Source: Erysipelotrichaceae bacterium
GTDB lineage: Bacteria > Bacillota_I > Bacilli_A > Erysipelotrichales > Erysipelotrichaceae
NCBI GenBank assembly: GCA_015058955.1
Contig: SVBJ01000014.1
Location: 1-47,072 of the forward strand
DNA: 47,072 nt
Reading direction: 5' to 3'
Position 1 is the first letter of the stretch; every line of letters starts with the position of its first letter. The notes beneath the pieces are model-generated. The model was not told the DNA's origin. It made no database searches and was given only the letters and a program-made list of their open reading frames with translations. Shown here in pieces: positions 152 through 31,418 of this stretch. Made by a program: the position numbers and the translations under genes.

Positions 152-1438
152 ATGAAAATAGGTTTAGTATCTTTAGGCTGCAGCAAGAATCTGATCGATA
201 CGCAGACAGCCATGAAATTCTTAAGCAAACAGGGACATATATTTACGGCCAATGTCAGAGATGCTGACGTCATTATAGTAAATACCTGTGCTTTTATCAA
301 TGATGCCAAGCAGGAATCAATTGATACCATTCTGGAAATGGCCGATTACAAATCCGGCAGATGCCAGAAGCTGCTGGTAATGGGCTGTCTGGCTCAGCGT
401 TACTGTAAGGATCTGCAGGCCGCCATGCCGGAAGTTGACCGCTTCATTACCATTGATGAATACCCGCACCTTGAAGAGATCCTGAAAAGCGAGATCGAAC
501 CGGCAGGGGACAGTGAGGAGAAAACGGTTCTGGCCACCAAGCCATGGACAGCTTATCTGCGCATTTCCGATGGCTGTAACAACCGCTGTGCCTTCTGTGC
601 GATTCCTTACATCAGAGGTCCATATCGCTCAGTTCCTTTTGAGGAACTGATAAATCAGGCCAGTGAACTGGAATCACTGGGAGTCAAGGAAATAAATCTC
701 ATTGCCCAGGATACCAGCCGTTATGGGTTTGATCTGTATCATGAAAACAGACTGCTTGATCTGCTGAAGGAATTAAACAGAATGAATTTCCACTGGATCA
801 GAGTGCTGTATCTCTATCCGGATCTTATCACTAAGGAATTCCTGGTTGAAATGAAGAAACTGGATAAGGTACTGCCTTACTTTGACATGCCGGTACAGCA
901 TGGTTCTGACCGACTGCTGAAAGCCATGAGAAGGATCACGGACAGTAATAAGATAGCTGAACTGACAGGTTGGATAAGAGAAGTGTTTGAAGATCCGACA
1001 TTGAGAACTACCGTGATCGTCGGTTTCCCATCTGAAACAAGATATGACTTCCGGGATCTGATCAAAATGGTTTCTGAAGTCCGCTGGGACCATCTGGGAG
1101 CCTTTAAATATTCCCGTGAGGAAAATACCGAAGCTTATTCAATGAAGCCTCAGGTGGCTAAAAAGACGATGCAGAACCGTCTGGATAAGATCATGATATT
1201 ACAGCAGGGCATTGACACGGAAGCCAAGGAAAAATATCTGGGCAAGACAATGGAAGTTCTCATTGAAGGTAAGGATGCCATCAAGAATCTGTATATCGGA
1301 AGAAACAGAACCCAGGCTCCTGATAACATTGATGGCATGACCATCTTTACCTCTGACAGACAGCTTGAACCAGGCGAATTTGTCAATGTCAGAATAACAC
1401 GCATTCAGGGATATGACATGTATGGAGAAACCGTATGA
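152..1438 (+). CDS. rimO: ribosomal protein S12 methylthiotransferase RimO
   Basis: This is a radical SAM enzyme of the methylthiotransferase family, predicted to methylthiolate the conserved aspartate of ribosomal protein S12. The N-terminal UPF0004 domain has its three cluster cysteines in GCSKN (near residue 10), NTCAF (near 46) and MGCLAQ (near 80). The radical SAM motif CNNRCAFC lies near residues 147-154, and a TRAM-like domain ends the protein. At 428 residues it has family length. The cytosolic RimO start MKIGLVSLGCSKN, without an extension, favours RimO over MiaB. Its last bases overlap the ATG of the transketolase gene (ATGA), so the two are translationally coupled. Confidence 0.95.
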   Translation: MKIGLVSLGCSKNLIDTQTAMKFLSKQGHIFTANVRDADVIIVNTCAFINDAKQESIDTILEMADYKSGRCQKLLVMGCLAQRYCKDLQAAMPEVDRFITIDEYPHLEEILKSEIEPAGDSEEKTVLATKPWTAYLRISDGCNNRCAFCAIPYIRGPYRSVPFEELINQASELESLGVKEINLIAQDTSRYGFDLYHENRLLDLLKELNRMNFHWIRVLYLYPDLITKEFLVEMKKLDKVLPYFDMPVQHGSDRLLKAMRRITDSNKIAELTGWIREVFEDPTLRTTVIVGFPSETRYDFRDLIKMVSEVRWDHLGAFKYSREENTEAYSMKPQVAKKTMQNRLDKIMILQQGIDTEAKEKYLGKTMEVLIEGKDAIKNLYIGRNRTQAPDNIDGMTIFTSDRQLEPGEFVNVRITRIQGYDMYGETV

Positions 1439-2253
1439 GTGAACTTGAAACAATCGCTAACAGAATGCGCATTAACATCATCAGAATGATACATGCTGCC
1501 AACAGCGGTCATCCCGGCGGATCCTTAAGCTGTGCAGACATCATTGCCACTCTGTATTTCAGGATAATGAATGTTAATAAAGATAACATAAACAGTACCA
1601 ACAGAGACCGCTTCATTCTGTCAAAGGGACACCGGTGTGAAACTCTCTATGCTGCTCTGACAGAAATGGGAGTTATACCTCAGGAGGAACTGCTGACATT
1701 CCGTAAGTTCGGTTCTCGTCTGCAGGGACATCCAAGCATGAACAAGTGTCCGGGAGTAGACATGTCTTCCGGTTCATTGGGCCAGGGTCTATCAGTCGGT
1801 GTAGGGATGGCAATAGCCAATAAGATGGATGGAAATCCCAACCGTGTGTATGTATTATGCGGGGATGGAGAATGTCAGGAAGGAATGATCTGGGAACGGG
1901 CCATGTCCCGGTCTCATTATCAGCTTGATAATCTGTGTCTGATCGTTGACCATAACTACCTGCAGTCTGATGGACACATCCGTGAAATAATGAATAATTC
2001 TCCATTGGGAAAGAAATTCGACTCCTTTGGCTGGAATGTCTTCGGAGTAGACGGACATGATCCGGATGTACTTACCGCTGCCTTAATGCGGGCCAAGACC
2101 GTAAAGGACAAGCCAACTGTCATCATAGCCGAAACAGTAAAGGGGAAGGGTGTCAGCTTCATGGAAAATGAACCAGACTGGCATGGCAAGGGAATAAATG
2201 ATCAGCAGTATGATCAGGCCATCAGGGAACTGCGGGGTGAAGATCATGAGTAA
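1435..2253 (+). CDS. transketolase, N-terminal (thiamine diphosphate-binding) subunit
   Basis: This 272-residue protein is the first half of a split transketolase of the pentose phosphate pathway. Visible landmarks are SGHPGGSLSCADI near residues 23-35, the SKGHR segment that helps bind the substrate, and the thiamine diphosphate motif GDGECQEGMIWE, which continues to a conserved NHNYLQ-like segment (here DHNYLQ). It starts within the rimO stop codon and overlaps the next gene by 8 bases, so the two subunits should be made together. Separate N and C subunits are common in Bacillota and archaea. DXS is less likely, because DXS is a single chain of about 620 residues. Confidence 0.93.
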   Translation: MSELETIANRMRINIIRMIHAANSGHPGGSLSCADIIATLYFRIMNVNKDNINSTNRDRFILSKGHRCETLYAALTEMGVIPQEELLTFRKFGSRLQGHPSMNKCPGVDMSSGSLGQGLSVGVGMAIANKMDGNPNRVYVLCGDGECQEGMIWERAMSRSHYQLDNLCLIVDHNYLQSDGHIREIMNNSPLGKKFDSFGWNVFGVDGHDPDVLTAALMRAKTVKDKPTVIIAETVKGKGVSFMENEPDWHGKGINDQQYDQAIRELRGEDHE

Positions 2254-3178
2254 GACGGAAATCAGAGATGCCTATGGCAAGGCCCTTGTCAGACTGGCAT
2301 TAAGCAATCCTGATGTAGTTGTTGTGGATGTCGATGTTTCCAAGCCGATCAGATCAGCGGAATTTGAAAAGGTGGCACCGGAAAGACACTTCAATTTCGG
2401 TATTGCTGAAGGCAACATGATGGGCGTGGCAGCAGGACTGGCCTTAAGCGGCAAGATTCCTTTTGCCAACAGTTTTGCAATATTTGCAGCTGGGCGAGGC
2501 TATGAACAGATCAGAAATTCCATTGCTTCACCGCATCTCAATGTCAAGATCGTCGGTTCTCATGCCGGATTCTCACCGCGCATTGACGGGGCAAGTCACC
2601 AGTGTCTCGAAGACATTGCTTTGATGAGAGTATTGCCGGGTATGACGGTAATTCAGCCATGTGACGAAAGAGAAACCATTCAGGCGATTCAGGCTGCCGC
2701 TGAATTCAAAGGACCTGTATATATCAGATTAAGCCGCAGCCGGGTTGAAGATGTCTATGATGACGATTACAGATTTGAGCTGGGTAAGGCCGTAGTACTG
2801 CATGAAGGAGAATCGGCGGTTGTGATGTTTGCCAGCGGTACGATGGTACAGCGTTCATTGCAGGCGGTTGAACTGCTTAAGCGGAAAGGAATTGATCCTA
2901 CGGTGATCAATGTTCATACGATAAAGCCTCTGGATCAGGAAACTGTATTGAGATTCGCTGAAAAAGCTTCGCTGATAGTAACTCTTGAAGAACACAGCGT
3001 CATCGGAGGACTAGGCGGGGCCATTGCGGAATTACTGGCAGCACACTGTCCGAGAAAACAGCTGTTTATCGGAGTACATGACCAGTTCGGTGAAACAGGA
3101 ACAGTGGAACAACTGTTTGAAAAGCACGGTCTGACCGCTGAAAAGATCGCTGAAAGCATAGAAAAAGCAACCTTATAG
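2246..3178 (+). CDS. transketolase, C-terminal (pyrimidine-binding) subunit
   Basis: This is the second half of the split transketolase (310 residues). It has the pyrimidine-binding domain with the FNFGIAEGNMMGVAAGLA segment, whose Glu normally activates thiamine diphosphate, the central SHAGFSPRIDGASHQ segment, and a C-terminal transketolase domain (TLEEHSVIGGLGGA). The frame is open upstream to 2198, but ATG 2246 is chosen because MSKTEIRDAYGKAL is the usual family start and a GGGGTGA ribosome binding site precedes it. The gene is followed by a strong terminator. With rimO it forms a three-gene transcription unit. Confidence 0.93.
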   Translation: MSKTEIRDAYGKALVRLALSNPDVVVVDVDVSKPIRSAEFEKVAPERHFNFGIAEGNMMGVAAGLALSGKIPFANSFAIFAAGRGYEQIRNSIASPHLNVKIVGSHAGFSPRIDGASHQCLEDIALMRVLPGMTVIQPCDERETIQAIQAAAEFKGPVYIRLSRSRVEDVYDDDYRFELGKAVVLHEGESAVVMFASGTMVQRSLQAVELLKRKGIDPTVINVHTIKPLDQETVLRFAEKASLIVTLEEHSVIGGLGGAIAELLAAHCPRKQLFIGVHDQFGETGTVEQLFEKHGLTAEKIAESIEKATL

Positions 3179-3196
3179 TTGCTCTAAAGACATATG

Positions 3197-3224
3197 AAAA
3201 GTGCTGTATTTCAGCACTTTTTTG
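3197..3224. terminator. bidirectional intrinsic terminator
   Basis: AAAAGTGCTG (3197-3206) pairs perfectly with CAGCACTTTT (3212-3221) around a 5-base loop. There is a T run on the plus strand and an A run upstream that serves the minus strand. It separates the convergent transketolase and XRE/S24 genes. Confidence 0.9.
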
Positions 3225-3226
3225 AT

Positions 3227-3835
3227 TTAAGAGAACTTTATGCGGTTGTGGAGGACCTTGCCGACGATCCTGACCTGTTTTTCCTGCTGATCTTCTCTGG
3301 TGAGAACGATCGGTTCATAGTTTTCGTTGGCAGGTTCCAGGATCATGGCGTCATCGGTATACTTTACATATTTGACAGTTGCTTCATTATCAATCAGGAC
3401 AACTCCGATGTCACCGTTGTCAAGGTAATCCTGCTGTCTGACATAGATCAGATCCCCCGGAAGAATGCGGGCGTCCTTCATTGAATCCCCGGTTACTTCC
3501 AGATAGAAACAGTTACCGTGAGCGGCATCATCAGGAATGACATGTTCAAAGCCCAGATAGTTCTGATCAGCCAGGATAGGGGTACCGCCTCTGACCAGCC
3601 CAAGCACCGGGATCTCATTGGATGGTCTGACAGTAAGGTCAATGTTCATGATGTCATCGACTTCAACATTAAACAGCTGAGCTATCTTCTGAATGGTCTT
3701 ATATGGCGGGACAGCTGATCCGTCTTCCCATTTCTGAATGGTAGTAAAGGAAGTATATCCCAGATGTTCAGCCAGAAAAGGCTGAGAGTAATTGTTCTTT
3801 CTTCTCAGAAATCTGAGGTTCTTGCCAAAGTTCAT
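3227..3835 (-). CDS. LexA-like repressor: XRE helix-turn-helix plus S24 peptidase
   Basis: This 202-residue regulator has an XRE-type HTH at residues about 5-60 (LAEHLGYTSFTTIQKWEDG) and an S24 self-cleavage domain. The catalytic Ser lies in the GDSM motif near residue 114 and the Lys in EATVKY near residue 150. A linker and cleavage-site-like segment, GLVRGGTPILA, lies between them. The architecture is that of phage CI-like and LexA-like proteins that self-cleave on RecA filaments. The HTH is XRE rather than the winged LexA type, so it may be this lineage's SOS repressor or a dedicated stress repressor. The ATG at 3835 has a GGAGG site. It is divergent from a small gene, with palindromes over both promoters. 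Confidence 0.88.
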   Translation of the reverse strand: MNFGKNLRFLRRKNNYSQPFLAEHLGYTSFTTIQKWEDGSAVPPYKTIQKIAQLFNVEVDDIMNIDLTVRPSNEIPVLGLVRGGTPILADQNYLGFEHVIPDDAAHGNCFYLEVTGDSMKDARILPGDLIYVRQQDYLDNGDIGVVLIDNEATVKYVKYTDDAMILEPANENYEPIVLTREDQQEKQVRIVGKVLHNRIKFS

Positions 3836-3858
3836 AGTAAAGCCTCCGTTTAACTTTA

Positions 3859-3887
3859 TTATAATTCATATTGAAAACAAATCAAGT
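3859..3887 (-). promoter_or_regulatory. promoter of the XRE/S24 gene with a candidate operator in its spacer
   Basis: On the minus strand, TTGATT (3881-3886) and a perfect TATAAT (3859-3864) are 16 bases apart. The partial palindrome TTCATATTGAA (3866-3876; TTCA/TGAA arms) lies between them, the expected place for an autorepressor site. Confidence 0.65.
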
Positions 3888-3904
3888 ATTTTCAGGATAA
3901 CACA

Positions 3905-3933
3905 TTGAATCATATTCAAGTAATGGTTATAAT
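3905..3933 (+). promoter_or_regulatory. promoter of the 74-residue gene overlapped by a perfect palindrome
   Basis: TTGAAT (3905-3910) and TATAAT (3928-3933) are 17 bases apart. The palindrome TTGAATCATATTCAA (3905-3919, 6-3-6) covers the -35. The -10 ends 6 bases before the ATG at 3940, so the transcript is probably leaderless. Confidence 0.7.
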
Positions 3934-3939
3934 AAAGAT

Positions 3940-4164
3940 ATGAAAACAGCAGTAGATGTCATATGCCTTTATCCGCAGAACGGATTAATAAAACCGTTAT
4001 TCATCATCTGGAATAACGGTGCAAGATATCCTATTGATTCTGTTGACCAGATCGTTCCGGTCGCTGACGGGGAAGTATGCGGAGTGCGCTACAGCTGCCG
4101 CTTGGGCAAACATCAGCGTTACCTGTTTCTGGAGAACGGTAAATGGTTCATTGACAGATCATAG
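3940..4164 (+). CDS. small protein divergent from the S24 repressor, possibly damage-inducible
   Basis: This protein has 74 residues and no signal peptide or membrane segment. Its pattern (GLIKPLFIIWNNGARYPID near the N-terminus, VRYSCRL, then RYLFLENGKWFID at the end) resembles small proteins encoded beside dinB or lexA-like genes in several Bacillota. That resemblance is from memory and was not searched. The gene has its own promoter, apparently under the control of the divergent S24 repressor, and no Shine-Dalgarno. It overlaps the convergent TraB-like gene by 6 bases. The composition, strong promoter and well-formed beta-rich sequence argue that it is a real gene. The function is unknown; an SOS accessory role is inference only. 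Confidence 0.72.
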   Translation: MKTAVDVICLYPQNGLIKPLFIIWNNGARYPIDSVDQIVPVADGEVCGVRYSCRLGKHQRYLFLENGKWFIDRS

Positions 4165-4177
4165 TTTTTCTATGATC
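4157..4177. other. hairpin spanning two convergent stop codons
   Basis: GATCATAG (4157-4164) pairs perfectly with CTATGATC (4170-4177) around five T. The stop codons of the small gene (TAG 4162-4164) and the TraB-like gene (TGA, minus, 4159-4161) both lie in the left arm. There is no following T run, so it is not a classical terminator, but it could block read-through or stabilise 3' ends. Confidence 0.6.
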
Positions 4178-5322
4178 TTGGAGAAGATGTTCAGTCCGCT
4201 CAGTATCGTACCAAGCGTACTGCCTACATTGGCCAGAATGACGACCATCAGGACCTTCAGGACTCTGTTGGAGAAGAATGTCTTAACTGAACCAAGGTCA
4301 TCGGAAACCTTCTGAAAATCCTCGACTGTAGGTTTTCTGATGTAAGCCTCTGTCAGACCGGCAAACCAGCCGGCTGCCAGTAAGGGATTCAGAGATGTTA
4401 TCGGGGCAACCAGGAAAGCAACCAGAATGGAAATGATGTGACCGCCAGCCAGAAGTGTACCCAGGGCGCTGGCAGTTCCGTTGAACAGGATCCAGGTCTT
4501 GATCTGCTGTAATCCGATCTCCTTATCCTTGCTGAAGGAGAACAATATTAACAGGATGATGGCCACTGGTAATATCCAGGATGCGATCCTGCTGGCAGTG
4601 CTTTTAGGAGGGATCTCATCGAACTCCTTTATATCATAATCTTCATTAATATGCTTCTGAACGCCAATGGTATGCGCAGCACCCATGACTGCCACGATAT
4701 TGGTACCGGGTGCATTTTTGATTTTATAGGCAAGATACTTGTCTCTTTCCGTAATCAGCACTTCAGCAACATTAGGGAAGGCCTTGGATACTTCTTCCAG
4801 GGCAGCACTGAGTGCTTCGGACTGCTGCAGGTTATTGAGTTCCTGTTCAGATATTTCCTCGTCGTCAAAGATGGAAGAGACAATTACATTTAATAATCTG
4901 ATCTTATCCTTAGCAGTAAGCTTGCGCCAGGTTCTCTTGAAGGTGGTCTGGATATTGCGGTCAGCCAGGACCAGATTGGCTCCTGACTGTTCTGCCTTGT
5001 TCATGGCCGTGATCATTTCATTTCCGGTCTGTGATCCCAGATGCTTAGCCAGTCTTTTCTGATAACTGCCCAGGATCAGGTTAGCCAGAACATAGCCGAC
5101 TCTTTTTTCCTTAATGATCTTTACAATGTCGGTATTTTTGAATTTGTCCGGATTCTTCAGGGATTCATAACGGCTCTGATCCAGTTCAATGCAGATGGTA
5201 TCCGGCTGCAGTTCATCAATGGTAGCCGCAACCAGTTCGGCACTGTTCTTTGATACATGTGCTGTCGGTATCAGTGTTATGTTCTTTCCGTTGCATTCCA
5301 GTTTAATTACTTCAATATCCAT
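4159..5322 (-). CDS. TraB/PrgY (TIKI-like) family membrane protein
   Basis: This 387-residue protein has an N-terminal soluble TraB domain and four or so C-terminal membrane segments (from SRIASWILPVAIILLILFSF onward, residues about 245-385). The family motifs PTAHVSKNSAE (near residue 18) and GAAHTIGVQKHI (near 216) contain the conserved His residues shared with TIKI-type metalloproteases. PrgY of Enterococcus limits pheromone activity, but most members have no known job. The frame is open to 5454; ATG 5322 is chosen because it has an AGGTG site and a promoter directly upstream (TTGCCA, 16 bases, TATAAT). It is divergent from the c-di-AMP cyclase operon. Confidence 0.85.
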   Translation of the reverse strand: MDIEVIKLECNGKNITLIPTAHVSKNSAELVAATIDELQPDTICIELDQSRYESLKNPDKFKNTDIVKIIKEKRVGYVLANLILGSYQKRLAKHLGSQTGNEMITAMNKAEQSGANLVLADRNIQTTFKRTWRKLTAKDKIRLLNVIVSSIFDDEEISEQELNNLQQSEALSAALEEVSKAFPNVAEVLITERDKYLAYKIKNAPGTNIVAVMGAAHTIGVQKHINEDYDIKEFDEIPPKSTASRIASWILPVAIILLILFSFSKDKEIGLQQIKTWILFNGTASALGTLLAGGHIISILVAFLVAPITSLNPLLAAGWFAGLTEAYIRKPTVEDFQKVSDDLGSVKTFFSNRVLKVLMVVILANVGSTLGTILSGLNIFSKIIEKL

Positions 5323-5340
5323 TTTATTCACCTGTCTACT

Positions 5341-5368
5341 ATTATACTCTACAGTTTTTCCCTGGCAA
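5341..5368 (-). promoter_or_regulatory. promoter of the TraB-like gene
   Basis: On the minus strand, TTGCCA (5363-5368) and TATAAT (5341-5346) are separated by 16 bases. The -10 lies 18 bases upstream of ATG 5322, leaving room for the AGGTG ribosome binding site. Confidence 0.65.
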
Positions 5369-5427: not shown

Positions 5428-5452
5428 ACTTAAATGAAAAGAGGAATTCAAC

Positions 5453-21510: not shown

Positions 21511-22515
21511 TTATGGTTCTCTGGCACCTATGTAGATGTAATAGCTGCCGATGATTATGAATCCCAGTGATACCAGTCCCAGGGCTGCCATCAGCAGATA
21601 TGTTGAGGTATTGAGTGCCAGAACATTGGTGTCATGAGTTATGTTTCCCCGATTGTGACTGGCGGGATCGAAGTTGATCGTTCTGATTATCGTAAATACA
21701 TAGGAGTTGACATCACCATTTTTACCGGTAAGAGTCACGATGATCTGATTGTTTATCTCATCTGACACTTCCATTTCTACGTCAGGATTTTCCGGAACGA
21801 AGTCATAACTGAGTCTGGCCCTGCTGTCAACTTCTACCTTGTAGGCAGATGTGAGCTTGTTGAAGACCGGTGTGCACTTGGCATCTGGGAAATCAGCTTT
21901 CTTCAGATACAGGCTGTGCAAAGGCTTCTGATGAACCTGCATGGCCAGAGTATCATTTACAAATGACTGATCAGTATTAACTGTTCTGTCTTCATATATC
22001 GGGTCAGGTATTACGATCTCATCAATGCAGCCGCCCATCGCCTGACAGGCTTTTTCCTTTTCCTTTGCTTCATCGATCTGTTTCTGGTTGATGACGGTTT
22101 TCTCCGTTATCAATACATCAGCATATACGTCAGAAGTGGTAATGCTTATGTCACCGGTTTTCTCATGTACGACAAAGGTGACGGTAAACAGGGAAGTATC
22201 AGCTGTAATGTTTGACGAAGACTGAGCAGCGAAATAGATGCTGCCGCTGGTCTTGGTATCAAAAGTGACATTGACTTCACTGAGTGAGTCGTTTTTTTCA
22301 ATGGAGAATACTGAAAGCCTGTCAGCAGGGTAGTTGATGTATCCGCGTACATTGTTGACGGCATCGCCTCTGATGGAGAAGTCTACCATTGTAAGCGAAT
22401 CGCTGGTAACACTGGAACTGCCGGAAAGTGACACATAAAAATCTCCTGCCTTGACAGGAGCAAGTGTCAGCAGCAATGCACTCACGATAATAAAGGCATT
22501 TACAAGCTTTCTCAT
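21511..22515 (-). CDS. secreted, C-terminally anchored cohesin-like/cadherin-like protein
   Basis: This 334-residue protein has a signal peptide (residues 1-23, ending PVKAGD), then a beta-rich cohesin-like domain at about 25-140 (DSLTMVDFSIRG, VRGYINYPADRL, TFVVHEKTGD). A linker with a Cys pair (CQAMGGC) and a cadherin-like beta-sandwich (about 205-275; TSAYKVEVDSRARLSYDF to YVFTIIR) follow. One membrane segment near the C-terminus (about 305-328) is followed by a short positive tail. It is therefore displayed outside and anchored by its C-terminus. There is no dockerin or sortase motif. The job is unknown; ligand binding or adhesion is inference from folds. Confidence 0.82.
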   Translation of the reverse strand: MRKLVNAFIIVSALLLTLAPVKAGDFYVSLSGSSSVTSDSLTMVDFSIRGDAVNNVRGYINYPADRLSVFSIEKNDSLSEVNVTFDTKTSGSIYFAAQSSSNITADTSLFTVTFVVHEKTGDISITTSDVYADVLITEKTVINQKQIDEAKEKEKACQAMGGCIDEIVIPDPIYEDRTVNTDQSFVNDTLAMQVHQKPLHSLYLKKADFPDAKCTPVFNKLTSAYKVEVDSRARLSYDFVPENPDVEMEVSDEINNQIIVTLTGKNGDVNSYVFTIIRTINFDPASHNRGNITHDTNVLALNTSTYLLMAALGLVSLGFIIIGSYYIYIGAREP

Positions 22516-22521
22516 ATTGTT

Positions 22522-22550
22522 ATCTTAACATTATTAAATCTTTTACTCAA
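22522..22550 (-). promoter_or_regulatory. promoter of the secreted-protein gene, predicted leaderless start
   Basis: On the minus strand, TTGAGT (22545-22550) and TAAGAT (22522-22527) are 17 bases apart. The -10 ends 6 bases before ATG 22515 and the gap AACAAT offers no ribosome binding site. Confidence 0.5.
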
Positions 22551-22565
22551 GTTGCGGGAAAAGTA

Positions 22566-22571
22566 TATAAT
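22566..22571 (+). promoter_or_regulatory. -10 box of glpK
   Basis: A perfect TATAAT lies 26 bases upstream of the glpK ATG, followed by a GGAGGG ribosome binding site (22588-22593). The -35 at the right distance (TTACTC) is poor. Confidence 0.5.
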
Positions 22572-22597
22572 GGTAATAGAGTAATTCGGAGGGTAAT

Positions 22598-24076
22598 ATG
22601 TCATCATATATTTTATCAATTGACCAGGGCACTACCAGTTCACGTGCAATTGTTTTTGATGAGAAACTGCAGATCGTCGGAGTAGCCCAGAAGGAAATTC
22701 CCAACTTTTTCCCTAAACCGGGATGGGTTGAAATGGATGCCAATGATATCTATGAATCAGTAATTGAAGTAGTAAAGGAAGTACTGATCAAGACCCGTGT
22801 CATGCCTGTTGAGATAAAGGGCATTGGCATTACCAACCAGAGAGAAACAACCATTGTCTGGGACAGAAAGACCGGCAAGCCGGTATACAATGCCCTGGTA
22901 TGGCAGTCACGTCAGTCCAATGATCTGTGCGAACAGGTCATCAGAGCCGGACATTCCAACTACATAAAGGAAAAGACCGGTCTGACCGTTGACCCGTATT
23001 TCTCCGCCAGCAAGATCAGATGGATCCTTGATCACATTGATGACGGTCAGCAGAGAGCCATTGCCGGTGAATTAATGTTCGGTACGGTCGACAGCTGGCT
23101 GGTATACAAACTTTCCAACGGAAGAACTCATATCACTGATGTCTCCAACGCCAGCAGAACGATGCTGATGGACATTGATAACTTATGCTGGGATAAAAAG
23201 CTGCTGGATATCTGGAACATTCCGGAAGTAATGCTGCCGCAGATCAAGGAAAGCAGTACGATTTATGATTATACTGATTTCCTGGAAACCGAGATTCCTA
23301 TTGCATCTGTAATAGGTGACCAGCAGTCTGCACTGTTTGGCCAGATGTGCTTTGAAGAAGGTCAGTGCAAGAATACCTATGGTACCGGCTGCTTCTTGCT
23401 GTTCAATACCGGTAAGAAGAGAGTCAATTCCAAAAACGGTCTGGTTTCCACCATTGCCTGGAAGATCGGGGATGAAGTCTATTACGCTCTGGAAGGCTCT
23501 GTATTCGTTGCAGGAAGCGCAATTCAGTGGCTTAGAGATGGTCTCAAGCTTATTGAAACAGCCCCTGAAAGCGAAGAAAGAGCAGCAAGAGTGCCTGATT
23601 CAGGCGGAGTATACGTTGTTCCGGCCTTTACCGGCTTAGGAGCTCCATATTGGGATCAGAATGCCCGCGGTGCCATCTTCGGACTGACCAGAGGAACTAC
23701 CAGATCACATCTGATCAGAGCAACTCTCGAATCACTCGCTTACCAGACCTTTGACGTCATTGAAGCTCTGGAAAATGATACCAACATTACCGTTAAGGGA
23801 TTACAGGTTGACGGCGGTGCCTGCCGCAACAATCTGCTGATGCAGTTCCAAGCTGACATTCTTCATGCTGAAATTATCAGACCGGTAAACTTTGAAACCA
23901 CTGCCTTAGGTGCCTGCATGCTGGCAGGACTGGCTGTCGGAGCATTTAAGTCGCAGGATGAATTGCGCATGATGTATAATGTTGATCGTAGATTCGAGCC
24001 AATGATCTCCATTACTCACCAGTCCAGACTGATTCAGGGCTGGAAGAAGGCGGTCAGGGCCACAATGGAATTCTAG
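22598..24076 (+). CDS. glpK: glycerol kinase
   Basis: GlpK phosphorylates glycerol to glycerol-3-phosphate. The FGGY-family fold is complete at 492 residues: the N-terminal phosphate loop DQGTTSSRAI, GITNQRETT and W-x-SRQS-like substrate contacts near 80-105, VDSWLVYKLS, and the C-terminal domain (GGVYVVPAFTGLGAPYWD, VDGGACRNN). No glpF or glpD is adjacent, so uptake and oxidation genes must be elsewhere. A TSCPD gene follows after 8 bases and probably shares the transcript. Confidence 0.96.
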   Translation: MSSYILSIDQGTTSSRAIVFDEKLQIVGVAQKEIPNFFPKPGWVEMDANDIYESVIEVVKEVLIKTRVMPVEIKGIGITNQRETTIVWDRKTGKPVYNALVWQSRQSNDLCEQVIRAGHSNYIKEKTGLTVDPYFSASKIRWILDHIDDGQQRAIAGELMFGTVDSWLVYKLSNGRTHITDVSNASRTMLMDIDNLCWDKKLLDIWNIPEVMLPQIKESSTIYDYTDFLETEIPIASVIGDQQSALFGQMCFEEGQCKNTYGTGCFLLFNTGKKRVNSKNGLVSTIAWKIGDEVYYALEGSVFVAGSAIQWLRDGLKLIETAPESEERAARVPDSGGVYVVPAFTGLGAPYWDQNARGAIFGLTRGTTRSHLIRATLESLAYQTFDVIEALENDTNITVKGLQVDGGACRNNLLMQFQADILHAEIIRPVNFETTALGACMLAGLAVGAFKSQDELRMMYNVDRRFEPMISITHQSRLIQGWKKAVRATMEF

Positions 24077-25340: not shown

Positions 25341-25370
25341 AAAAGCTGTCAGTATCAACTGACGGCTTTT
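25341..25370. terminator. bidirectional intrinsic terminator
   Basis: AAAAGCTGTCAGT (25341-25353) pairs with ACTGACGGCTTTT (25358-25370), with one T-G wobble and a 4-base loop. It lies between the convergent SIS and DUF5662-like genes. Confidence 0.88.
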
Positions 25371-25906
25371 CAGTAATTGTTCCTTATGATTTCCATGGCC
25401 TTGTCCAGGTCATTTTCAGCTACGATGGTAAGCATTTCTCGGACATAAGCCACTGTTTTTTCCGGCATCAGATACTGTTCCCGGGATCTATCGAGGAACT
25501 CCAGGGCACTGGAAGGGTGATATTTGTCTTTCTGATAGACCATGCAGGCAGCAATGCGGTCACAGATCATTTCCTTGATGTATTTCATTGGCATTTCCAG
25601 CTGAACAATCTTTCCTTTATGAAAATCGGTCCAGTACTGCCAGTGATGCTTGTTGCGGCCTTTGTGATGAAGCCAGGCAGTGGAATAACCTCTGTCTTTT
25701 CTTTCAGCATCAATAGGTGAGCGGTTTCCCTGAAAATACCTGACTCCCAGCCAGAATTCCTCAATGGAATACTTGGAAAGATCGTGGGTAAGTCCCTGCC
25801 AGTACAAACCCATTTTAAAGCACAGTTTACAAACCAGAAAGCGGTGCTGATTTATGGTATGAAGATGCTGGAAAAACGATATAAAGAGGTTGTGATTTTC
25901 TTTCAT
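25370..25906 (-). CDS. DUF5662-like protein
   Basis: This 178-residue protein matches, from memory, the DUF5662 family: HRFLVCKLCFKMG, then THDLSKYSIEEF, then HHKGRNKHHWQYW. The repeated His and Asp residues suggest a metal site of HD-phosphohydrolase kind, but no activity is known to me. There is no signal peptide. ATG 25906 lies exactly 6 bases after a good -10 with no ribosome binding site, so it is probably translated from a leaderless mRNA. Confidence 0.78.
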   Translation of the reverse strand: MKENHNLFISFFQHLHTINQHRFLVCKLCFKMGLYWQGLTHDLSKYSIEEFWLGVRYFQGNRSPIDAERKDRGYSTAWLHHKGRNKHHWQYWTDFHKGKIVQLEMPMKYIKEMICDRIAACMVYQKDKYHPSSALEFLDRSREQYLMPEKTVAYVREMLTIVAENDLDKAMEIIRNNY

Positions 25907-25912
25907 AAATCC

Positions 25913-25941
25913 ATATTAGACAGTTATTCTTTAATAAGCAA
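25913..25941 (-). promoter_or_regulatory. promoter of the DUF5662-like gene, predicted leaderless start
   Basis: On the minus strand, TTGCTT (25936-25941) and TAATAT (25913-25918) are 17 bases apart. Only GGATTT lies between the -10 and ATG 25906. Confidence 0.6.
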
Positions 25942-25949
25942 GAGGGATT

Positions 25950-25958
25950 TGCTATAAT
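25950..25958 (+). promoter_or_regulatory. extended -10 promoter of lspA
   Basis: TGCTATAAT is an extended -10 (TGn plus TATAAT at 25953-25958). The -35 is weak. Transcription should begin near 25965, leaving a leader of about 10 bases with no Shine-Dalgarno. Confidence 0.6.
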
Positions 25959-25974
25959 AAACGCGGTACATTTT

Positions 25975-26427
25975 ATGAAATTACGTGACTGGATTATCGT
26001 TATAGTACTTATTGCAGCTGATCAGATCAGCAAGCTTTGGATCTCTTCCGCAATGCAGCTTAACCAGAGCATTGAAGTGATCAAAGACTTTTTCTATATC
26101 ACGTATACCACCAATACCGGAGCTGCCTGGAGCGTTGGCGAAGGGTTAGGCAGTCTGTTTGTAGTCGTAGCGTTTGCATTGTGCGGTGGTATCGTTTACT
26201 ATCTTTATAAGCATGAAGATACCGGCTGGTTCTTAAAGCTGGTACTGCTGCTGATCGTAGCAGGCGGACTGGGAAATGCCATTGACAGAGTCAGACTGGG
26301 CTATGTCATAGACTTCCTTAATTTCTATATCTTCGGATATGATTTCCCGGTATTCAACATTGCTGACTGCTTCATTACGCTGGCGATGTTCGGCCTGATC
26401 ATTTCAGTAATGACTGAAAAGGAGTAA
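25975..26427 (+). CDS. lspA: lipoprotein signal peptidase (signal peptidase II)
   Basis: LspA is an aspartic protease of the membrane that removes signal peptides from prolipoproteins, such as the one encoded at 43250-45061. Its 150 residues form four membrane segments. The catalytic aspartates are Asp104 (GNAIDRV) and Asp131 (FNIADCF). The N-terminal AADQISK motif and the TNTGAAWS motif are also present. No ribosome binding site precedes ATG 25975. It starts an operon with rluD and the rhomboid gene, a common lspA-rluD arrangement. Confidence 0.95.
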   Translation: MKLRDWIIVIVLIAADQISKLWISSAMQLNQSIEVIKDFFYITYTTNTGAAWSVGEGLGSLFVVVAFALCGGIVYYLYKHEDTGWFLKLVLLLIVAGGLGNAIDRVRLGYVIDFLNFYIFGYDFPVFNIADCFITLAMFGLIISVMTEKE

Positions 26428-26429
26428 GA

Positions 26430-27347
26430 ATGGACACAATTGAAATATTAGTTGATGAGACACTGGCAAAACAGAGAATAGATAAGCGGCTGTTGGAGAC
26501 AACAGGTTTTTCCCGTACCCGTTTCCAGCAACTCGTTGATGAAGGTCTGGTCCTGGTGAATGATGAACCTGTCAAGTCAAACTACAAGCTGAGACTCAAT
26601 GACCTGGTTACCATTGAAGTACCGGAAGCGGAAGAATACAATCTTGAACCGGTGGAAATGGATCTGGACATTGTCTACGAAGATGCTGACATCATTGTCA
26701 TCAACAAGCCACGCGGTCTGATCGTACATCCTACACCGACTACCAAAGAAGCAACTCTGGTAAACGGCGTTCTGTATCACTGCAGGGATCTTTCCGGTAT
26801 TAACGGTGTGTTAAGACCGGGAGTCGTTCACCGCATTGACAAGGATACTACCGGGCTGATCATCATGGCCAAGAATGATGAAGCCCATCAGTTTCTGGCA
26901 GCCCAGCTGGCAGACAAGACCATGAACCGCAAATACTATGCCTTAGTCAACGGTGTCATTCAGCATGATAACGGAACGATCGATGCCCCAATAGGCAGAG
27001 ATCCTAACGACCGTCAGAAGATGGCTGTCACTGATAAGAATTCCAAGGAAGCCATTACTCGTTTCAAGGTAATCAAGAGATACAGAAAGCATACGCTGAT
27101 CGAGTGCTCACTGTTAACAGGCAGAACTCACCAGATCAGGGTTCACATGGAATACATCGGTTATCCGGTAGTAAATGATCCAAAATATGCACCTAAGAGA
27201 AGCAGGGGAAACGGGCAGTTGCTGCATGCTCACCAGCTGAACTTCATTCATCCGCGCACCAGACAGCAGATGGTACTGGAATGTCCGTTACCGGCTGATT
27301 TCCAGGAATATCTTGATCAGCTGGATAAGCAGGAGGCACGGCTATGA
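26430..27347 (+). CDS. 23S rRNA pseudouridine synthase, RluD family
   Basis: This 305-residue protein has an N-terminal S4 RNA-binding domain (residues about 10-70, with QRIDKRLLE, TRFQQLVDEGLVLVN) and a pseudouridine synthase domain. The catalytic Asp lies in HRIDKDTTGL near residue 139, with the TGRTHQIRVHM motif near 225. It is of the RluD/YlyB type; the exact rRNA positions cannot be assigned. It starts 2 bases after lspA and overlaps the rhomboid gene by 4 bases. Confidence 0.94.
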   Translation: MDTIEILVDETLAKQRIDKRLLETTGFSRTRFQQLVDEGLVLVNDEPVKSNYKLRLNDLVTIEVPEAEEYNLEPVEMDLDIVYEDADIIVINKPRGLIVHPTPTTKEATLVNGVLYHCRDLSGINGVLRPGVVHRIDKDTTGLIIMAKNDEAHQFLAAQLADKTMNRKYYALVNGVIQHDNGTIDAPIGRDPNDRQKMAVTDKNSKEAITRFKVIKRYRKHTLIECSLLTGRTHQIRVHMEYIGYPVVNDPKYAPKRSRGNGQLLHAHQLNFIHPRTRQQMVLECPLPADFQEYLDQLDKQEARL

Positions 27348-28603
27348 GAAATACCCGTCTCTGGATGAATCAGCTGATCAGATACTTCATCATGTCACAT
27401 GACTATGCCCAGATCAGCTTTGTCAATCCGACAACATCACAGCCATTGGAAAGCATCTGGCTGGTAAATCCAGCCAAGGAATACATGGCCATTCACATTT
27501 CAACCGATACCCAGGCATCAACGATTGCCCGCACTACCCAGATGAAGAATGAAGCCTATTCCATCTTCAATGCCTTCGGCAAGCAGGGCAGGATACTTGA
27601 CATCAGCTTTGATGAAGCTGCCAGAAACTTCATTGATGAGGAAACCACATTCATCGCCATATATCCGCAATGTGAAGTCACTGATGCCGTCAAAAGACAG
27701 TTTCCGGAGATAGGAACAGTCATCTATGATGTTGACGATCCTGAGGCTGAAATAAAGAAAAACAATGACGAGATCAAGACCTTCCTCATTAACAAGATGA
27801 AAAAGAGCAGATCACCGTCATTCCATACGCCTGCTGAATTTCTTGAATCAATGTCCAAGACATACATTGTTGCCGGCATTATCTGCGTCATCGTCTGGGC
27901 TGCATTATACATTCTCAGCGTCATCACCAAGATAAATACTACTTATCTGGGACTGACCTTCGGAGCTTACTTCAAACCTTACATAACCGCTCTTAACCAG
28001 TGGTACAGACTGATTACCTGCGGATTCATGCATGTTTCACTGTTCCATCTGCTGGCCAACATGATCGCCTTAAGGCCGCTGTCCAAAGCCGTGGAAAACC
28101 AGTTTGGATTTGCCAAAACGATTGCCACATTGTTAATATCCATTGTCATTGGTTCGCTGTTTGTCTATTTCAGCAATTCCAATGAGATATCAGTAGGATT
28201 ATCAGGCGGTATCTATGGACTTATCGGTGCTCTGATGGTGATACTGTTTCAGGAAGGACTGTTTAAGGTACCGGCCGTCAGACAGAGATTAATGAGTACG
28301 CTGTATCTCAACATCATTCTCAATTTCCTGCCTAATGTCTCATTCATGGCTCATCTGGGCGGATTTATTTCCGGAGTATTCCTGGGATTCATCTTCTCAC
28401 AGAAATCAGACAAAGCATTACGAACTAACTTTACGATAGCGGGACTTATCATCGTTGGATTTATGATCGGTTACTGCATCATGAACCACTCGGTAAGCAC
28501 CGTTTATCCTGATCTGGATGCCCGAATGATACAGGTATTACGCAGATTAAACCTCAACAGCTATGCTGACAGATTACTGGCCATGCTGAAGAAATACTAT
28601 TAA
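27344..28603 (+). CDS. rhomboid-family intramembrane serine protease
   Basis: This 419-residue protein has a soluble N-terminal domain of about 170 residues that I do not recognise and a rhomboid domain with six or so membrane segments. The catalytic Ser lies in GLSGGIYG (near residue 286) and the catalytic His in MAHLGGFISG (near 335). The HLLANM segment of the family is also present (near 235). The substrate is unknown. It overlaps rluD by 4 bases (ATGA) and is followed after 12 bases by the dCMP deaminase gene. Confidence 0.92.
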   Translation: MRNTRLWMNQLIRYFIMSHDYAQISFVNPTTSQPLESIWLVNPAKEYMAIHISTDTQASTIARTTQMKNEAYSIFNAFGKQGRILDISFDEAARNFIDEETTFIAIYPQCEVTDAVKRQFPEIGTVIYDVDDPEAEIKKNNDEIKTFLINKMKKSRSPSFHTPAEFLESMSKTYIVAGIICVIVWAALYILSVITKINTTYLGLTFGAYFKPYITALNQWYRLITCGFMHVSLFHLLANMIALRPLSKAVENQFGFAKTIATLLISIVIGSLFVYFSNSNEISVGLSGGIYGLIGALMVILFQEGLFKVPAVRQRLMSTLYLNIILNFLPNVSFMAHLGGFISGVFLGFIFSQKSDKALRTNFTIAGLIIVGFMIGYCIMNHSVSTVYPDLDARMIQVLRRLNLNSYADRLLAMLKKYY

Positions 28604-28615
28604 GGAGAACTGAAT

Positions 28616-29098
28616 ATGGAAAAAAAGAAAATTCTGAGCTGGGATGAATACTTTCTCTCACTGGCACATTTAAGCGGAATGCGTTCCAAAGACCCTAACA
28701 CACAGGTAGGGGCTGTCATCGTCGATGACAAAAACCGCATTGTTTCAATCGGTTACAACGGCATGCCCAGAGGCTGCTATGATGACCAGTTCCCTTGGGG
28801 AAGAGAGGGAAGCTTCCTGGAGACCAAATATGCCTTTGTGGTTCATGCTGAACTCAATGCCATTCTCAACTCCAGCCGTCCGGTAGAAGGATGCACGATT
28901 TATGTTTCTCTGTTCCCATGCAATGAATGCGCCAAGGCCATCATTCAGTCAGGAATAAAGGCTGTCTTCTATGAATCAGACAAATACGCCGATTCCGATA
29001 ACGTCATAGCCTCGAAAAAAATGCTGCTCAATGCCGGTGTGGCATTAAAGCAGCTTGATTTCGGTGTTGATGTTGACGTTGAGATCACAAAAAACTGA
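28616..29098 (+). CDS. dCMP deaminase (ComEB type)
   Basis: This zinc deaminase of 160 residues is predicted to convert dCMP to dUMP for thymidylate synthesis. Zinc ligands are His77 in HAELNAIL (with catalytic Glu79), Cys102 and Cys105 in PCNEC. The N-terminal SKDPNTQVGAVIVD segment is typical. In Bacillus the homologue ComEB sits in a competence operon, but no comEA or comEC is here. Its 3' end overlaps the convergent ispH gene by 14 bases. Confidence 0.93.
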   Translation: MEKKKILSWDEYFLSLAHLSGMRSKDPNTQVGAVIVDDKNRIVSIGYNGMPRGCYDDQFPWGREGSFLETKYAFVVHAELNAILNSSRPVEGCTIYVSLFPCNECAKAIIQSGIKAVFYESDKYADSDNVIASKKMLLNAGVALKQLDFGVDVDVEITKN

Positions 29099-29993
29099 CA
29101 ATGGTTTCCAGATCCGTCTGCAGATATGAGGCATCATGAGTCTGCAGATAGGCTATGACATTATCCAGCAGTACTTTCGGTGTTGAGGCACCGGAAGCAA
29201 CCGCTATTCTGTCATTTTCACTGAATTTTACATTTACAAGGTCCCGGGCAGTTTCAATGCGCAGGACTTTTCTTATGCCGGCACTGGATCCCATGCGGGC
29301 CAGCTGCAGGGTATTATTGCTTTTGGGATCACCGACAACGATCAGTACATCGGTATCCTTTAGATTACGGACAGCGTTCTGTCTTCTTCTGGTGGCATCA
29401 CAGATTTCCTCGGCGATTTCAGCATGAGGGAATCTTTTTCTTATCTTTCTGATTATATCTGCCGTATCGTTTATTGACATGGTAGTCTGAGTCGTTACCA
29501 GGATATTTTTATCCGTATTATTAATTTTATCTACATCATCGGCATCGGTGATCAGGATAATGCTTTCGTTGATCGAAAGGGCAGCTTCTGATTCCGGATG
29601 TTTCTTCTTGCCAATGTAGAAAATGGAATAACCGCGGTTTAGATAGTCACGGATGATCTGGTGGGTCTTACGGACAAACTCGCAGGTGGCATCAACCACG
29701 GTCAGACCTTTTTCAATGGCTCTGTTTTTGACACTGTCTGCGATCCCGTGCGCAGTAAAGACGACAACGCCGCTCTCTATTGATTCCACAAGCTCCATTT
29801 TCGACTTGCTGGAATCATCAAGAGTAATGACGTTTCTGGTTTTTAAGGCATCAACGATATAGCGGTTATGGACCAGCATGCCCACGATGTAAACAGGCTG
29901 ATCAGGATAATCCCAGACAGCTTTCTTGACCATGGCCAGGGCATAGCCGACACCCTTGCAGTAACCTGACGGCTTTACTTCACATATTTCCAT
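29085..29993 (-). CDS. ispH: 4-hydroxy-3-methylbut-2-enyl diphosphate reductase IspH
   Basis: IspH is the last enzyme of the MEP isoprenoid pathway and a 4Fe-4S protein. The three cluster cysteines are visible in SGYCKGV (residue 12), DATCEFV and EEICDAT. The His residues in VGMLVHNRYIV and VVFTAHGI and the acid TTQTTMS region are also present. The protein has 302 residues. The frame opens earlier with GTG codons to 30005, but ATG 29993 is preferred because MEICEVKPSGYC is the family-like start and the GTGGTGG stretch can act as a ribosome binding site. It supplies precursors for the IspA homologue in this window. Confidence 0.93.
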   Translation of the reverse strand: MEICEVKPSGYCKGVGYALAMVKKAVWDYPDQPVYIVGMLVHNRYIVDALKTRNVITLDDSSKSKMELVESIESGVVVFTAHGIADSVKNRAIEKGLTVVDATCEFVRKTHQIIRDYLNRGYSIFYIGKKKHPESEAALSINESIILITDADDVDKINNTDKNILVTTQTTMSINDTADIIRKIRKRFPHAEIAEEICDATRRRQNAVRNLKDTDVLIVVGDPKSNNTLQLARMGSSAGIRKVLRIETARDLVNVKFSENDRIAVASGASTPKVLLDNVIAYLQTHDASYLQTDLETIVSFL

Positions 29994-30010
29994 TTCCACC
30001 ACCACTTATA

Positions 30011-30050
30011 TTTATAGCACGTTTTTATTTCTTTTAAAAACTGTTATAAT
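30011..30050. promoter_or_regulatory. divergent promoters of ispH and the DEAD-box helicase
   Basis: On the plus strand, TGTTATAAT (30042-30050) is an extended -10 ending 6 bases before the helicase ATG. On the minus strand, TGCTATAAA lies with its hexamer at 30011-30016, upstream of ispH. Both -35 regions are poor, and the two promoters are close enough to interfere. Confidence 0.55.
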
Positions 30051-30056
30051 TTCTGT

Positions 30057-31418
30057 ATGATTAACCGTAAAGAACTTAAGCCTGAGATCCAGGCACTTAT
30101 TGAAAAGAAGAAATTCAGGGATTTCACTCCAATACAGCAGAAAGCTTATCCGCTGATCGTGAAGGGAAAGGACGTAGTGGGCATTTCAGCTACCGGTACG
30201 GGAAAGTCTCATGCTTTCATCATACCGATCCTGCAGCTGATTGATACTTCCAAGGATCAGATACAGGCTGTAATTACCGCTCCAACCAGAGAACTGGCCC
30301 GCCAGCTTTTCCGTCAGTTCAGCGAAATAAATGAGTTTGATGATTCCTACAGGATCAAGCTGATCAGTTCAGGAATGGATAAATCCCGCATGATAGAAGG
30401 TCTTAACAGCCAGCCTCACATTGTCATCGGCACAGTGGGAAGACTGAAGGACCTGTTTGTTGATGAAGCGGTCTTAAGACTGGACAAGGCCAGAATACTG
30501 GTCGTAGATGAAGCAGACATGACCCTGGAATTAGGCTTCATTGATGAAGTTGACCAGATCTGCGGCCGTCTTAACCGCAAACTGCAGATGCTGGTATTCA
30601 GTGCAACGGTACCAGGTCAGCTGCAGCCTTTCCTAAGAAAATACATGAACAAGCCGACAGTTATTGAAGCAGATGAGGATCATCCTAACAATCCTCAGAT
30701 CGAGCATGTCCGGATCAACTGCCGTCATCTGAGCTATCAGGAAAAACTGTTAAGGATTTTGCCGGGCATCAATCCGTATGTCTGCATGATCTTTGCACGT
30801 ACCAAGGATGAAGTAAAGACCACTTCCGATCTGCTTAAGGAAAACGGCTACAGCATCATTGAACTCCACGGTGACCTTACCACCAGAGAAAGAAAGCAGG
30901 CCCTTAAAGCCATTGATTCCGATCAGATCAGCTACATTGTCTGCTCTGACATCATGGCCAGAGGTCTGGATATTCCAAGCGTCAGCCATGTAATATCCCT
31001 TGGCCTGCCGTCATCACTGGAGTACTATACTCACAGATCAGGCAGAACGGGACGTGCCGGCAGAAGCGGAATTTCCTATCTGCTGTTTAATGAAAAGGAC
31101 ATTCAGGGAATCAAGACTCTGAGAACTCAGGGTTTTGAATTTGAATACAGAGATTACCGCAAAAGCGGCTGGGTAACCGTCAAGCCGTTTGACTATAAGC
31201 CTGCCAAGCCAAAGAACGAATTTGACGAGGAAATTGAAAAGATCAGGAAACGTCCTGTCAAAAAGGTAAAACCAGGCTATAAGAAGAAGATAGCAGCTGA
31301 AATCGAATCAGTCAGAAGAAGACAGCGCCGTCTGATGATCAAGGCTTCCATCAAGCAGCAGCAGAAGGAAAGAGCCAAGGCCAATCAGCGTGCTGCCAGG
31401 AGTAAGAACAATGCTTAA
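30057..31418 (+). CDS. DEAD-box RNA helicase
   Basis: This 453-residue helicase has a Q motif (FRDFTPIQQKAYP), motif I ATGTGKS, Ia PTRELAR, motif II DEAD in VVDEADM, motif III SAT, motif V ARGLDIP and motif VI HRSGRTGRAG. After the core, residues about 385-453 form a very basic tail likely to bind RNA. It belongs to the CshA/CshB-like group that remodels ribosomal and messenger RNA. It has no ribosome binding site, and the extended -10 predicts a leaderless message. It overlaps the nfo gene by 8 bases. Confidence 0.93.
   Translation: MINRKELKPEIQALIEKKKFRDFTPIQQKAYPLIVKGKDVVGISATGTGKSHAFIIPILQLIDTSKDQIQAVITAPTRELARQLFRQFSEINEFDDSYRIKLISSGMDKSRMIEGLNSQPHIVIGTVGRLKDLFVDEAVLRLDKARILVVDEADMTLELGFIDEVDQICGRLNRKLQMLVFSATVPGQLQPFLRKYMNKPTVIEADEDHPNNPQIEHVRINCRHLSYQEKLLRILPGINPYVCMIFARTKDEVKTTSDLLKENGYSIIELHGDLTTRERKQALKAIDSDQISYIVCSDIMARGLDIPSVSHVISLGLPSSLEYYTHRSGRTGRAGRSGISYLLFNEKDIQGIKTLRTQGFEFEYRDYRKSGWVTVKPFDYKPAKPKNEFDEEIEKIRKRPVKKVKPGYKKKIAAEIESVRRRQRRLMIKASIKQQQKERAKANQRAARSKNNA

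What the first reader, a model, noticed from the sequence alone, without database searches (positions are those of the whole stretch)
152..30057. A set of genes with the -10 box exactly 6 bases before the ATG: predicted leaderless mRNAs
At four starts a well-spaced or extended -10 ends 6 bases before the start codon and no Shine-Dalgarno is available: the small gene at 3940 (TATAAT 3928-3933), the secreted protein at 22515 (TAAGAT, with TTGAGT 17 bases upstream), the DUF5662-like gene at 25906 (TAATAT, with TTGCTT 17 bases upstream) and the helicase at 30057 (TGTTATAAT). rimO at 152 (TAAAAT 140-145) may be a fifth, but has a possible GAGG site. Since transcription usually starts about 7 bases after the -10, the transcripts should begin at the ATG. 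Leaderless genes are rare in model Bacillota, so a repeated, exact spacing in one window is notable.
Basis: partly seen in the sequence, partly recalled or inferred. Interest (0 to 1): 0.72.

Follow-up and report, generated by a model that had tools for sequence, protein, structure and literature searches.

The report
Genes whose mRNA lacks a leader
Several genes here have a promoter placed so that the messenger RNA should begin exactly at the start codon, with no ribosome-binding leader; this arrangement is known in other bacteria, and here it is conserved in a related species, seems to have replaced ordinary leaders recently, and falls unusually often on genes that process or modify RNA.

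Summary
All five starts (152, 3940, 22515, 25906, 30057) have a -10 hexamer ending exactly 6 bases before ATG. In a 46% sample of the source genome (an Erysipelotrichaceae relative), genes without Shine-Dalgarno that head transcription units peak at gap 6: 19 of 151, against 4.5 at other gaps. The peak survives every start rule tried, is near background in operon-internal genes, recurs in two congeners, is weak in another genus (G033) and missing in one genome of another family (G037). All five window genes keep the gap in congener G008. For rimO, 3940 and the helicase, relatives outside that clade are mostly SD-led. So these are very probably leaderless mRNAs, about 3% of genes. RNA ends were not measured. 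The kind is known: TA-led genes in 56 of 209 Firmicutes genomes, 8-9% of streptococcal transcripts. 'Rare in model Bacillota' holds for clostridia, not streptococci. Unexpected extra: 10 of 22 predicted leaderless genes act in RNA or ribosome maturation, against 0 of 50 SD-led controls; 3 of 10 further genes in congeners do. That theme was noticed after the fact.

The parts
140..145 (+). -10 (TAAAAT), gap 6 to rimO ATG 152; possible GAGG at 136-139
   Evidence: same TAAAAT-6-ATG without GAGG in the G008 orthologue
152..1438 (+). rimO, ribosomal protein S12 methylthiotransferase, predicted leaderless
   Evidence: NCBIfam TIGR01125, 446.8 bits over cut-off 356.95
3905..3910 (+). -35 (TTGAAT), spacer 17; first arm of palindrome TTGAATCATATTCAA 3905-3919
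   Evidence: related sequence upstream of several orthologues
3928..3933 (+). -10 (TATAAT), gap 6 to ATG 3940
   Evidence: TATCAT at gap 6 in G008
3940..4164 (+). 74-aa protein of no named family, conserved; predicted leaderless
   Evidence: matches in 27 of 46 genomes; no Pfam or NCBIfam match
22522..22527 (-). -10 (TAAGAT), gap 6 to ATG 22515
   Evidence: identical in G008
22545..22550 (-). -35 (TTGAGT), spacer 17
   Evidence: also in G008
21511..22515 (-). secreted protein (signal-peptide-like N-terminus by eye), weak Cohesin similarity below Pfam's cut-off, found only in this genus; predicted leaderless
25913..25918 (-). -10 (TAATAT), gap 6 to ATG 25906
   Evidence: identical in G008
25936..25941 (-). 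-35 (TTGCTT), spacer 17
   Evidence: also in G008
25370..25906 (-). DUF5662 protein, predicted leaderless
   Evidence: PF18907 E 4.3e-38
30042..30050 (+). extended -10 (TGT TATAAT), gap 6 to ATG 30057; no good -35
   Evidence: conserved in G003 and G008
30057..31418 (+). DEAD-box RNA helicase, predicted leaderless
   Evidence: PF00270 E 4.5e-42; the three leaderless orthologues form one clade

Best explanation
The five genes are transcribed from sigma-A-type promoters whose -10 box is set so that RNA polymerase starts at, or within a base of, the A of ATG. The mRNA therefore has no 5' leader and no Shine-Dalgarno site, and is read by the 5'-terminal-AUG (leaderless) pathway. They belong to a small genome-wide class, about 2-3% of genes in this genus. 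Inferred: the RNA 5' ends, the initiation pathway, and that a roughly 13-nt shortening of a short SD leader made the switch.
For: Exact gap 6 at all five starts. Genome sample: 19 of 151 against 4.5; 25 of 113 against 4.8 with TANNNT and ATG; gap 6 is the highest gap under all 15 combinations of start rule and SD definition in G000, and likewise in G008 and G005. Operon-internal no-SD genes of G000: 2 of 97 against 1.1; SD-led non-operonic genes: 1 of 212. G008 12 of 138 against 3.8, G005 7 of 82 against 1.9. All 38 gap-6 genes of G000, G008 and G005 start with ATG, against 226 of 333 other non-operonic no-SD genes. G008 orthologues: 8 of 9 keep a gap-6 TANNNT without SD, including 5 of 5 window genes, at 65-84% protein identity; among 140 co-terminal G000-G008 pairs, both-TANNNT-at-the-same-gap is 8 at gap 6 and at most 3 at the other 30 gaps. 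Helicase: of 30 loci, three leaderless ones form one supported clade (100/99), 24 are SD-led, 2 neither, 1 without upstream DNA.
Against: Two window -10 boxes (TAAGAT, TAATAT) differ from TATAAT at two positions. Raw counts over all ATGs show no peak. About 4-5 of the 19 (or of the 25) sample genes are expected by chance. One of nine G008 orthologues (RNase P protein) lacks the gap-6 box, and for 22515 and 25906 the whole upstream region is nearly identical in G008, so those two say little about the box itself. G000-G005 pairs share gap 6 only twice, no more than gap 19. In G008 gaps 7 and 8 are raised too (7 and 9). G033 is weak (5 of 53 against 1.75), is not the single highest gap under most rules, and there 3 of 31 operonic genes also have the box. 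A good -35 is enriched with the gap-6 box only in G000 (10 of 19 against 12 of 74), not in G008 or G005; a TG extension clearly only in G008 (8 of 12 against 7 of 65). Gene starts come from my own simple caller.
Confidence: 0.86

Rival explanations
1. The transcripts start further upstream from another promoter, and ribosomes initiate without SD on an AT-rich, unstructured leader; the -10-like box at gap 6 is incidental or a secondary promoter.
For: 132 of 151 non-operonic no-SD genes carry no gap-6 box, so other SD-independent starts, or mis-called starts, must be common; in C. phytofermentans potentially leaderless genes generally had another TSS upstream and an RBS (PMC5171806, passage).
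Against: The peak is at one exact gap; the -10 letters are kept while flanking letters drift in the helicase and rimO; three of the five have a -35 at spacer 17 to this -10 and the helicase an extended -10.
Confidence: 0.08
2. The starts are mis-assigned: the true start is an SD-led codon downstream.
For: Start calling from sequence is fallible; GTG codons with an SD word follow at codon 28 of 22515 and codon 41 of 30057.
Against: G008 orthologues align from residue 1 for all five; 22515 opens with a signal-peptide-like stretch that the GTG start would remove.
Confidence: 0.03
3. Chance: AT-rich upstream DNA supplies TATAAT-like words at gap 6.
Against: Simulated sets reached at most 11 against 19; AT-richer G037 (28% GC) has no peak: 1 of 90 against 3.0; the gap is kept in 5 of 5 G008 orthologues.
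Confidence: 0.03

Closest known systems
TA-led (leaderless) genes of Zheng et al. 2011 (PMC3160421; passages read)
   Same: -10-like TANNNT around 12 bp upstream of the start; low-GC genomes use TAtAAT, several with TG before it; 56 of 209 Firmicutes genomes, 4.2% of genes on average (2.4-16.6); COG category A (RNA processing and modification) enriched
   Different: Firmicutes cases concentrated in Lactobacillales and Mycoplasma; the word Erysipelo does not occur in the text; that survey found COG J (translation) less likely to be leaderless, whereas most RNA-modification enzymes listed here would be filed in J (recalled)
Leaderless transcripts of streptococci (PMC4448216, PMC6431027, PMC6212727; passages read)
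   Same: 8-9% of transcripts; in S. agalactiae all with AUG and 90% starting at its A; 70 S. pneumoniae operons start exactly at the first coding base; 81% of the S. pyogenes set shared with S. agalactiae; a pbp2A-promoter reporter gave the same output with or without an added RBS
   Different: 5' ends measured there, predicted here; the estimated fraction here is lower, about 3% of genes or 6% of non-operonic genes
Leaderless transcripts of clostridia (PMC9045289, PMC5171806, PMC7438776; passages read)
   Same: A small minority of transcripts (2-3% in three solventogenic clostridia, 4% of a TSS class in C. phytofermentans, 15 genes in C. difficile)
   Different: In C. phytofermentans such genes generally keep an RBS and another start upstream; here the gap-6 genes lack SD (21 of 22)

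Membership tests
leaderless (TA-led) genes | -10 box about 10-12 bp upstream of the start codon | tested here: met
   first T at -12 in all five
leaderless (TA-led) genes | no Shine-Dalgarno site upstream | tested here: met
   4 of 5 have no 4-letter SD word; rimO has GAGG 12 nt from ATG, absent in G008
leaderless (TA-led) genes | signal confined to first genes of transcription units | tested here: met
   G000: non-operonic 19 of 151 against 4.5, operonic 2 of 97 against 1.1; G008 operonic 0 of 75, G005 1 of 53; but G033 operonic 3 of 31 against 0.55
leaderless (TA-led) genes | AUG start codon | tested here: met
   38 of 38 in G000, G008 and G005
leaderless (TA-led) genes | transcription starts at the A of AUG | not testable with these tools
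   needs 5'-end mapping
leaderless (TA-led) genes | translated without upstream sequence | not testable with these tools
   needs reporter or ribosome profiling

The most novel reading that the evidence does not exclude
The leaderless set is a translational regulon of RNA- and ribosome-maturation enzymes (RimO, an RNA helicase, RNase P protein, RsmG, MnmE, MnmA, MnmL, RNase III, RsuA- and RluA-type synthases, RlmD-type methylases). Being leaderless, they would be made preferentially when 30S assembly or SD recognition is impaired and 70S initiation is favoured, so that defective ribosomes boost their own maturation enzymes. The clade acquired this by shortening short SD leaders gene by gene.
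Probability: 0.13. Interest if true: 0.75.

Novelty: new member of a known kind. Interest (0 to 1): 0.42.

Why it matters
It adds a lineage (Erysipelotrichaceae-type bacteria) to those predicted to use leaderless genes, and shows the step between SD-led and leaderless starts inside one genus: the same helicase promoter sits 19 nt from ATG with an SD in three congeners (two of them near-identical) and 6 nt from ATG without one in three others. If the bias towards RNA-maturation genes holds, it makes a concrete question testable: do bacteria use leaderless mRNAs to couple ribosome maturation to ribosome state?

Tried and rejected
Raw pattern counts: TATAAT-N6-ATG gave 46 hits in the whole genome against 7 for the pattern read backwards, which looked decisive, but other gaps in the sample are as frequent; I dropped this as evidence. 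Extended -10 patterns gave a small peak at gap 6 in G000 and G008 only and were too noisy to survey more genomes.

First start-calling rule (best coding score only) put the starts of 22515 and 25906 too far in; replaced by the most upstream acceptable start, then five rules were compared.

Terminator-like hairpins abutting leaderless promoters: 9 of 38 against 23 of 334 SD-led promoters pooled over three genomes, one-sided p 0.002; each genome alone was not significant (p 0.06, 0.06, 0.14), and it was noticed after the fact, so it is only listed as noticed.

Literature: a search for 'leaderless' with 'Erysipelotrich' listed 5 papers; passages of two were read, and there the group is named only in an anti-SD table and in a reference; the other three were seen as listing only. 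The searches listed no paper whose title or start of abstract reports a leaderless RNA-maturation set; the nearest is the COG A note in PMC3160421 (passage).
Full report
What was checked. The five starts were read on both strands. Each has a -10 hexamer ending exactly 6 bases before ATG. The -35 boxes quoted for 22515 and 25906 are there at spacer 17; 3940 also has one (TTGAAT, spacer 17), and the helicase has an extended -10 but no good -35. None has another in-frame start upstream before a stop, and no in-frame ATG with an SD word follows in the 59 codons checked, though a GTG does in 22515 (codon 28) and 30057 (codon 41). Since a sigma-A-type polymerase starts about 7 bases after the -10 (established knowledge), gap 6 puts +1 on the A of ATG.

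The source. Of the 8 rimO relatives above 50% identity, 7 are titled Erysipelotrichaceae or Erysipelotrichia and 1 uncultured Firmicutes; the best is 79%. The genome held has 1.78 Mb in 37 contigs, and the window is contig 7. I took 40 stretches, with the window 826 kb or 46%, at 45% GC, and called genes with my own script (685 used). Genes with a same-strand neighbour less than 30 nt upstream were called operonic; genes at the end of a stretch, with no neighbour seen, counted as non-operonic.

Is gap 6 special? Among 151 non-operonic genes without a 4-letter SD word, TATAAT with at most one mismatch stands at gap 6 in 19, against a mean of 4.5 and a maximum of 9 at the other gaps 0-20; among 212 SD-led non-operonic genes, 1; among 97 operonic no-SD genes, 2 against 1.1. 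In G000, G008 and G005 gap 6 stays the highest under five start rules and three SD definitions. With first-order Markov sequences the mean was 2.9 and the maximum 11 in 1000 sets. Requiring ATG and counting TANNNT gives 25 of 113 against 4.8, an excess of about 20 genes or 2.9% of all 685. In contrast, counting every ATG in the DNA shows no peak: most ATGs are not starts. Other promoter marks are mixed: a good -35 goes with the gap-6 box in G000 (10 of 19 against 12 of 74 at other gaps) but not in G008 (3 of 12 against 14 of 65) or G005 (1 of 7 against 6 of 32); a TG extension is clearly enriched only in G008 (8 of 12 against 7 of 65).

Other genomes. G008 (same genus): 12 of 138 against 3.8, with gaps 7 and 8 also raised (7 and 9). 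G005 (same genus): 7 of 82 against 1.9. G033 (another genus of the family, though it falls inside this genus in the helicase tree): 5 of 53 against 1.75, not the single highest gap under most rules, and 3 of 31 operonic genes also have the box. G037 (another family of the order): 1 of 90 against 3.0, no peak. With TANNNT and ATG: G008 16 of 105 against 4.1, G005 7 of 46 against 1.1, G033 5 of 25 against 1.1, G037 2 of 64 against 2.7. All 38 gap-6 genes of G000, G008 and G005 start with ATG, against 226 of 333 other no-SD genes, matching S. agalactiae, where all leaderless transcripts have AUG (PMC4448216, passage).

Conservation. I compared 25 gap-6 genes of G000 (22 with at most one mismatch, plus 22515, 25906 and 3940) with the sampled DNA of four genomes, taking the best tblastn hit of at least 35% identity over half the protein. 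Nine have one in the G008 sample; 8 of 9 keep a TANNNT at gap 6 without SD, including all five window genes; the RNase P protein gene does not. For 22515 and 25906 the upstream DNA as a whole is nearly identical, so those two are weak tests. In G005, 2 of 4 keep the box (MnmE, MnmL) and 2 have SD (helicase, RNase III). In G033 0 of 8 keep it (7 have an SD word) and in G037 0 of 3 (1 has). Without choosing genes beforehand, 140 co-terminal G000-G008 pairs have TANNNT in both at the same gap 8 times at gap 6 and at most 3 times at any of 30 other gaps; with TATAAT at one mismatch 5 times against at most 3. G000-G005 pairs (56) share gap 6 twice, equal to gap 19; G000-G033 pairs never.

The switch. 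Helicase: 30 loci of 60 genomes searched were read. In the tree of the 30 proteins the three leaderless rows are one clade (100/99) nested among SD-led rows. 3940: of 28 loci, leaderless in G000 and G008; SD words in 6 of 6 other congeners found. rimO: leaderless in G000 and G008 (= L003); SD-like words, by eye, in the 7 other Erysipelotrich-type loci read (L004-L010); L011 was printed too and 71 of 80 loci were not examined upstream. So for these three genes the leaderless state looks derived, by loss of roughly 13 nt of an already short leader (inference). For 22515 and DUF5662 the wider picture could not be read, because loci could not be cut.

What the leaderless genes do. Pfam and NCBIfam scans of the 22 genes: RimO, DEAD-box helicase, RNase P protein, RsmG, MnmE, RsuA-type synthase, MnmL/YtqA, MnmA, RNase III, RluA-family synthase, that is 10 of 22 in RNA or ribosome maturation (10 of 25 with 3940, 22515 and DUF5662). 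Leaving out rimO (GAGG) and the two genes close behind a same-strand neighbour (RsuA type, RNase III) gives 7 of 19. The others are metabolic, transport, sensor or unknown. Of 50 SD-led non-operonic control genes (110-570 aa) drawn at random from a pool of 176, 0 are of this kind, or 1 if the ribosome-binding ATPase YchF is counted; 9 of the 50 matched no family. One-sided Fisher p is 1e-6 (10 of 22) and 5e-5 (7 of 19), or 1e-5 and 3e-4 with YchF counted. Since I saw the theme first and tested it after, the fairer test is on genes not seen before: of 10 further gap-6 genes of G008 and G005 scanned, 3 are RNA-modification enzymes (two RlmD-type methylases only 30% alike, one RluA-like synthase below the NCBIfam cut-off but over Pfam's), p 0.0035; 3 short proteins of G008, 1 operonic gene of G005 and the 8 listed genes of G033 were not scanned. 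No-SD genes without the gap-6 box were not scanned as a second control. A further PF05958 (RNA m5U methylase) gene of G000 would begin, in frame and within one codon of what its G005 counterpart predicts, at a TATAAT-N6-ATG listed (C28:77283-77297); its G008 counterpart has no gap-6 box under my start call, which made an over-long gene. Looking the other way, of the sampled non-operonic members of PF00849, PF00588 and PF05958 in the three congeneric genomes, 4 of 8 have the gap-6 box; of 10 operonic ones 5 have SD, 4 neither, 1 the box. Two of those three families were already known from the first list, so this is not independent. Zheng et al. reported COG category A enriched among leaderless genes but category J less likely (PMC3160421, passage). 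A dull explanation, that RNA-modification enzymes are weakly and steadily expressed single genes and so tolerate loss of SD, is at least as likely as a regulon (inference).

Verdict. Real, correctly read, and of a known kind. It is ordinary in mechanism; what is new, as far as my searches went, is the lineage, the within-genus switch, and the functional bias, which deserves a test.

Noticed in passing
3227-3835 (-) and 3905-3919: An HTH plus Peptidase_S24 (LexA/CI-like) regulator gene with an SD is divergent from the leaderless gene 3940; the promoter of 3940 carries a palindrome TTGAATCATATTCAA across -35 and spacer, and similar sequences precede several orthologues of 3940, including SD-led ones.
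   Followed up: partly
L085:1196, L090:15746, L100:3892, L109:13644; G008 L160, L168, L188; G005 L197, L205: Hairpins with a T-run (terminator-like) end 0-20 nt before the -10 of leaderless genes in 9 of 38, against 23 of 334 for SD-led promoters; terminator, promoter and start codon can fit in about 45 nt. Post hoc.
   Followed up: partly
22516-22598 and 25907-25975: Two leaderless promoters share short divergent intergenic regions with an FGGY kinase gene and a lipoprotein signal peptidase gene; the 22515 upstream region is nearly identical in G008 although the protein is only 65% identical, as if two promoters overlap.
   Followed up: no
L102:12950 (+) and its divergent neighbour, 42 nt apart: A leaderless NUDIX gene and an RluA-type gene without SD face away from each other across only 42 nt; the RluA-type gene has no gap-6 box, while its G008 orthologue (68%) has TAATGT at gap 6.
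   Followed up: no
21511-22515 (-): Secreted-type protein with weak Cohesin-domain similarity, below Pfam's cut-off: found in 9 of 46 genomes, all of this genus.
   Followed up: no
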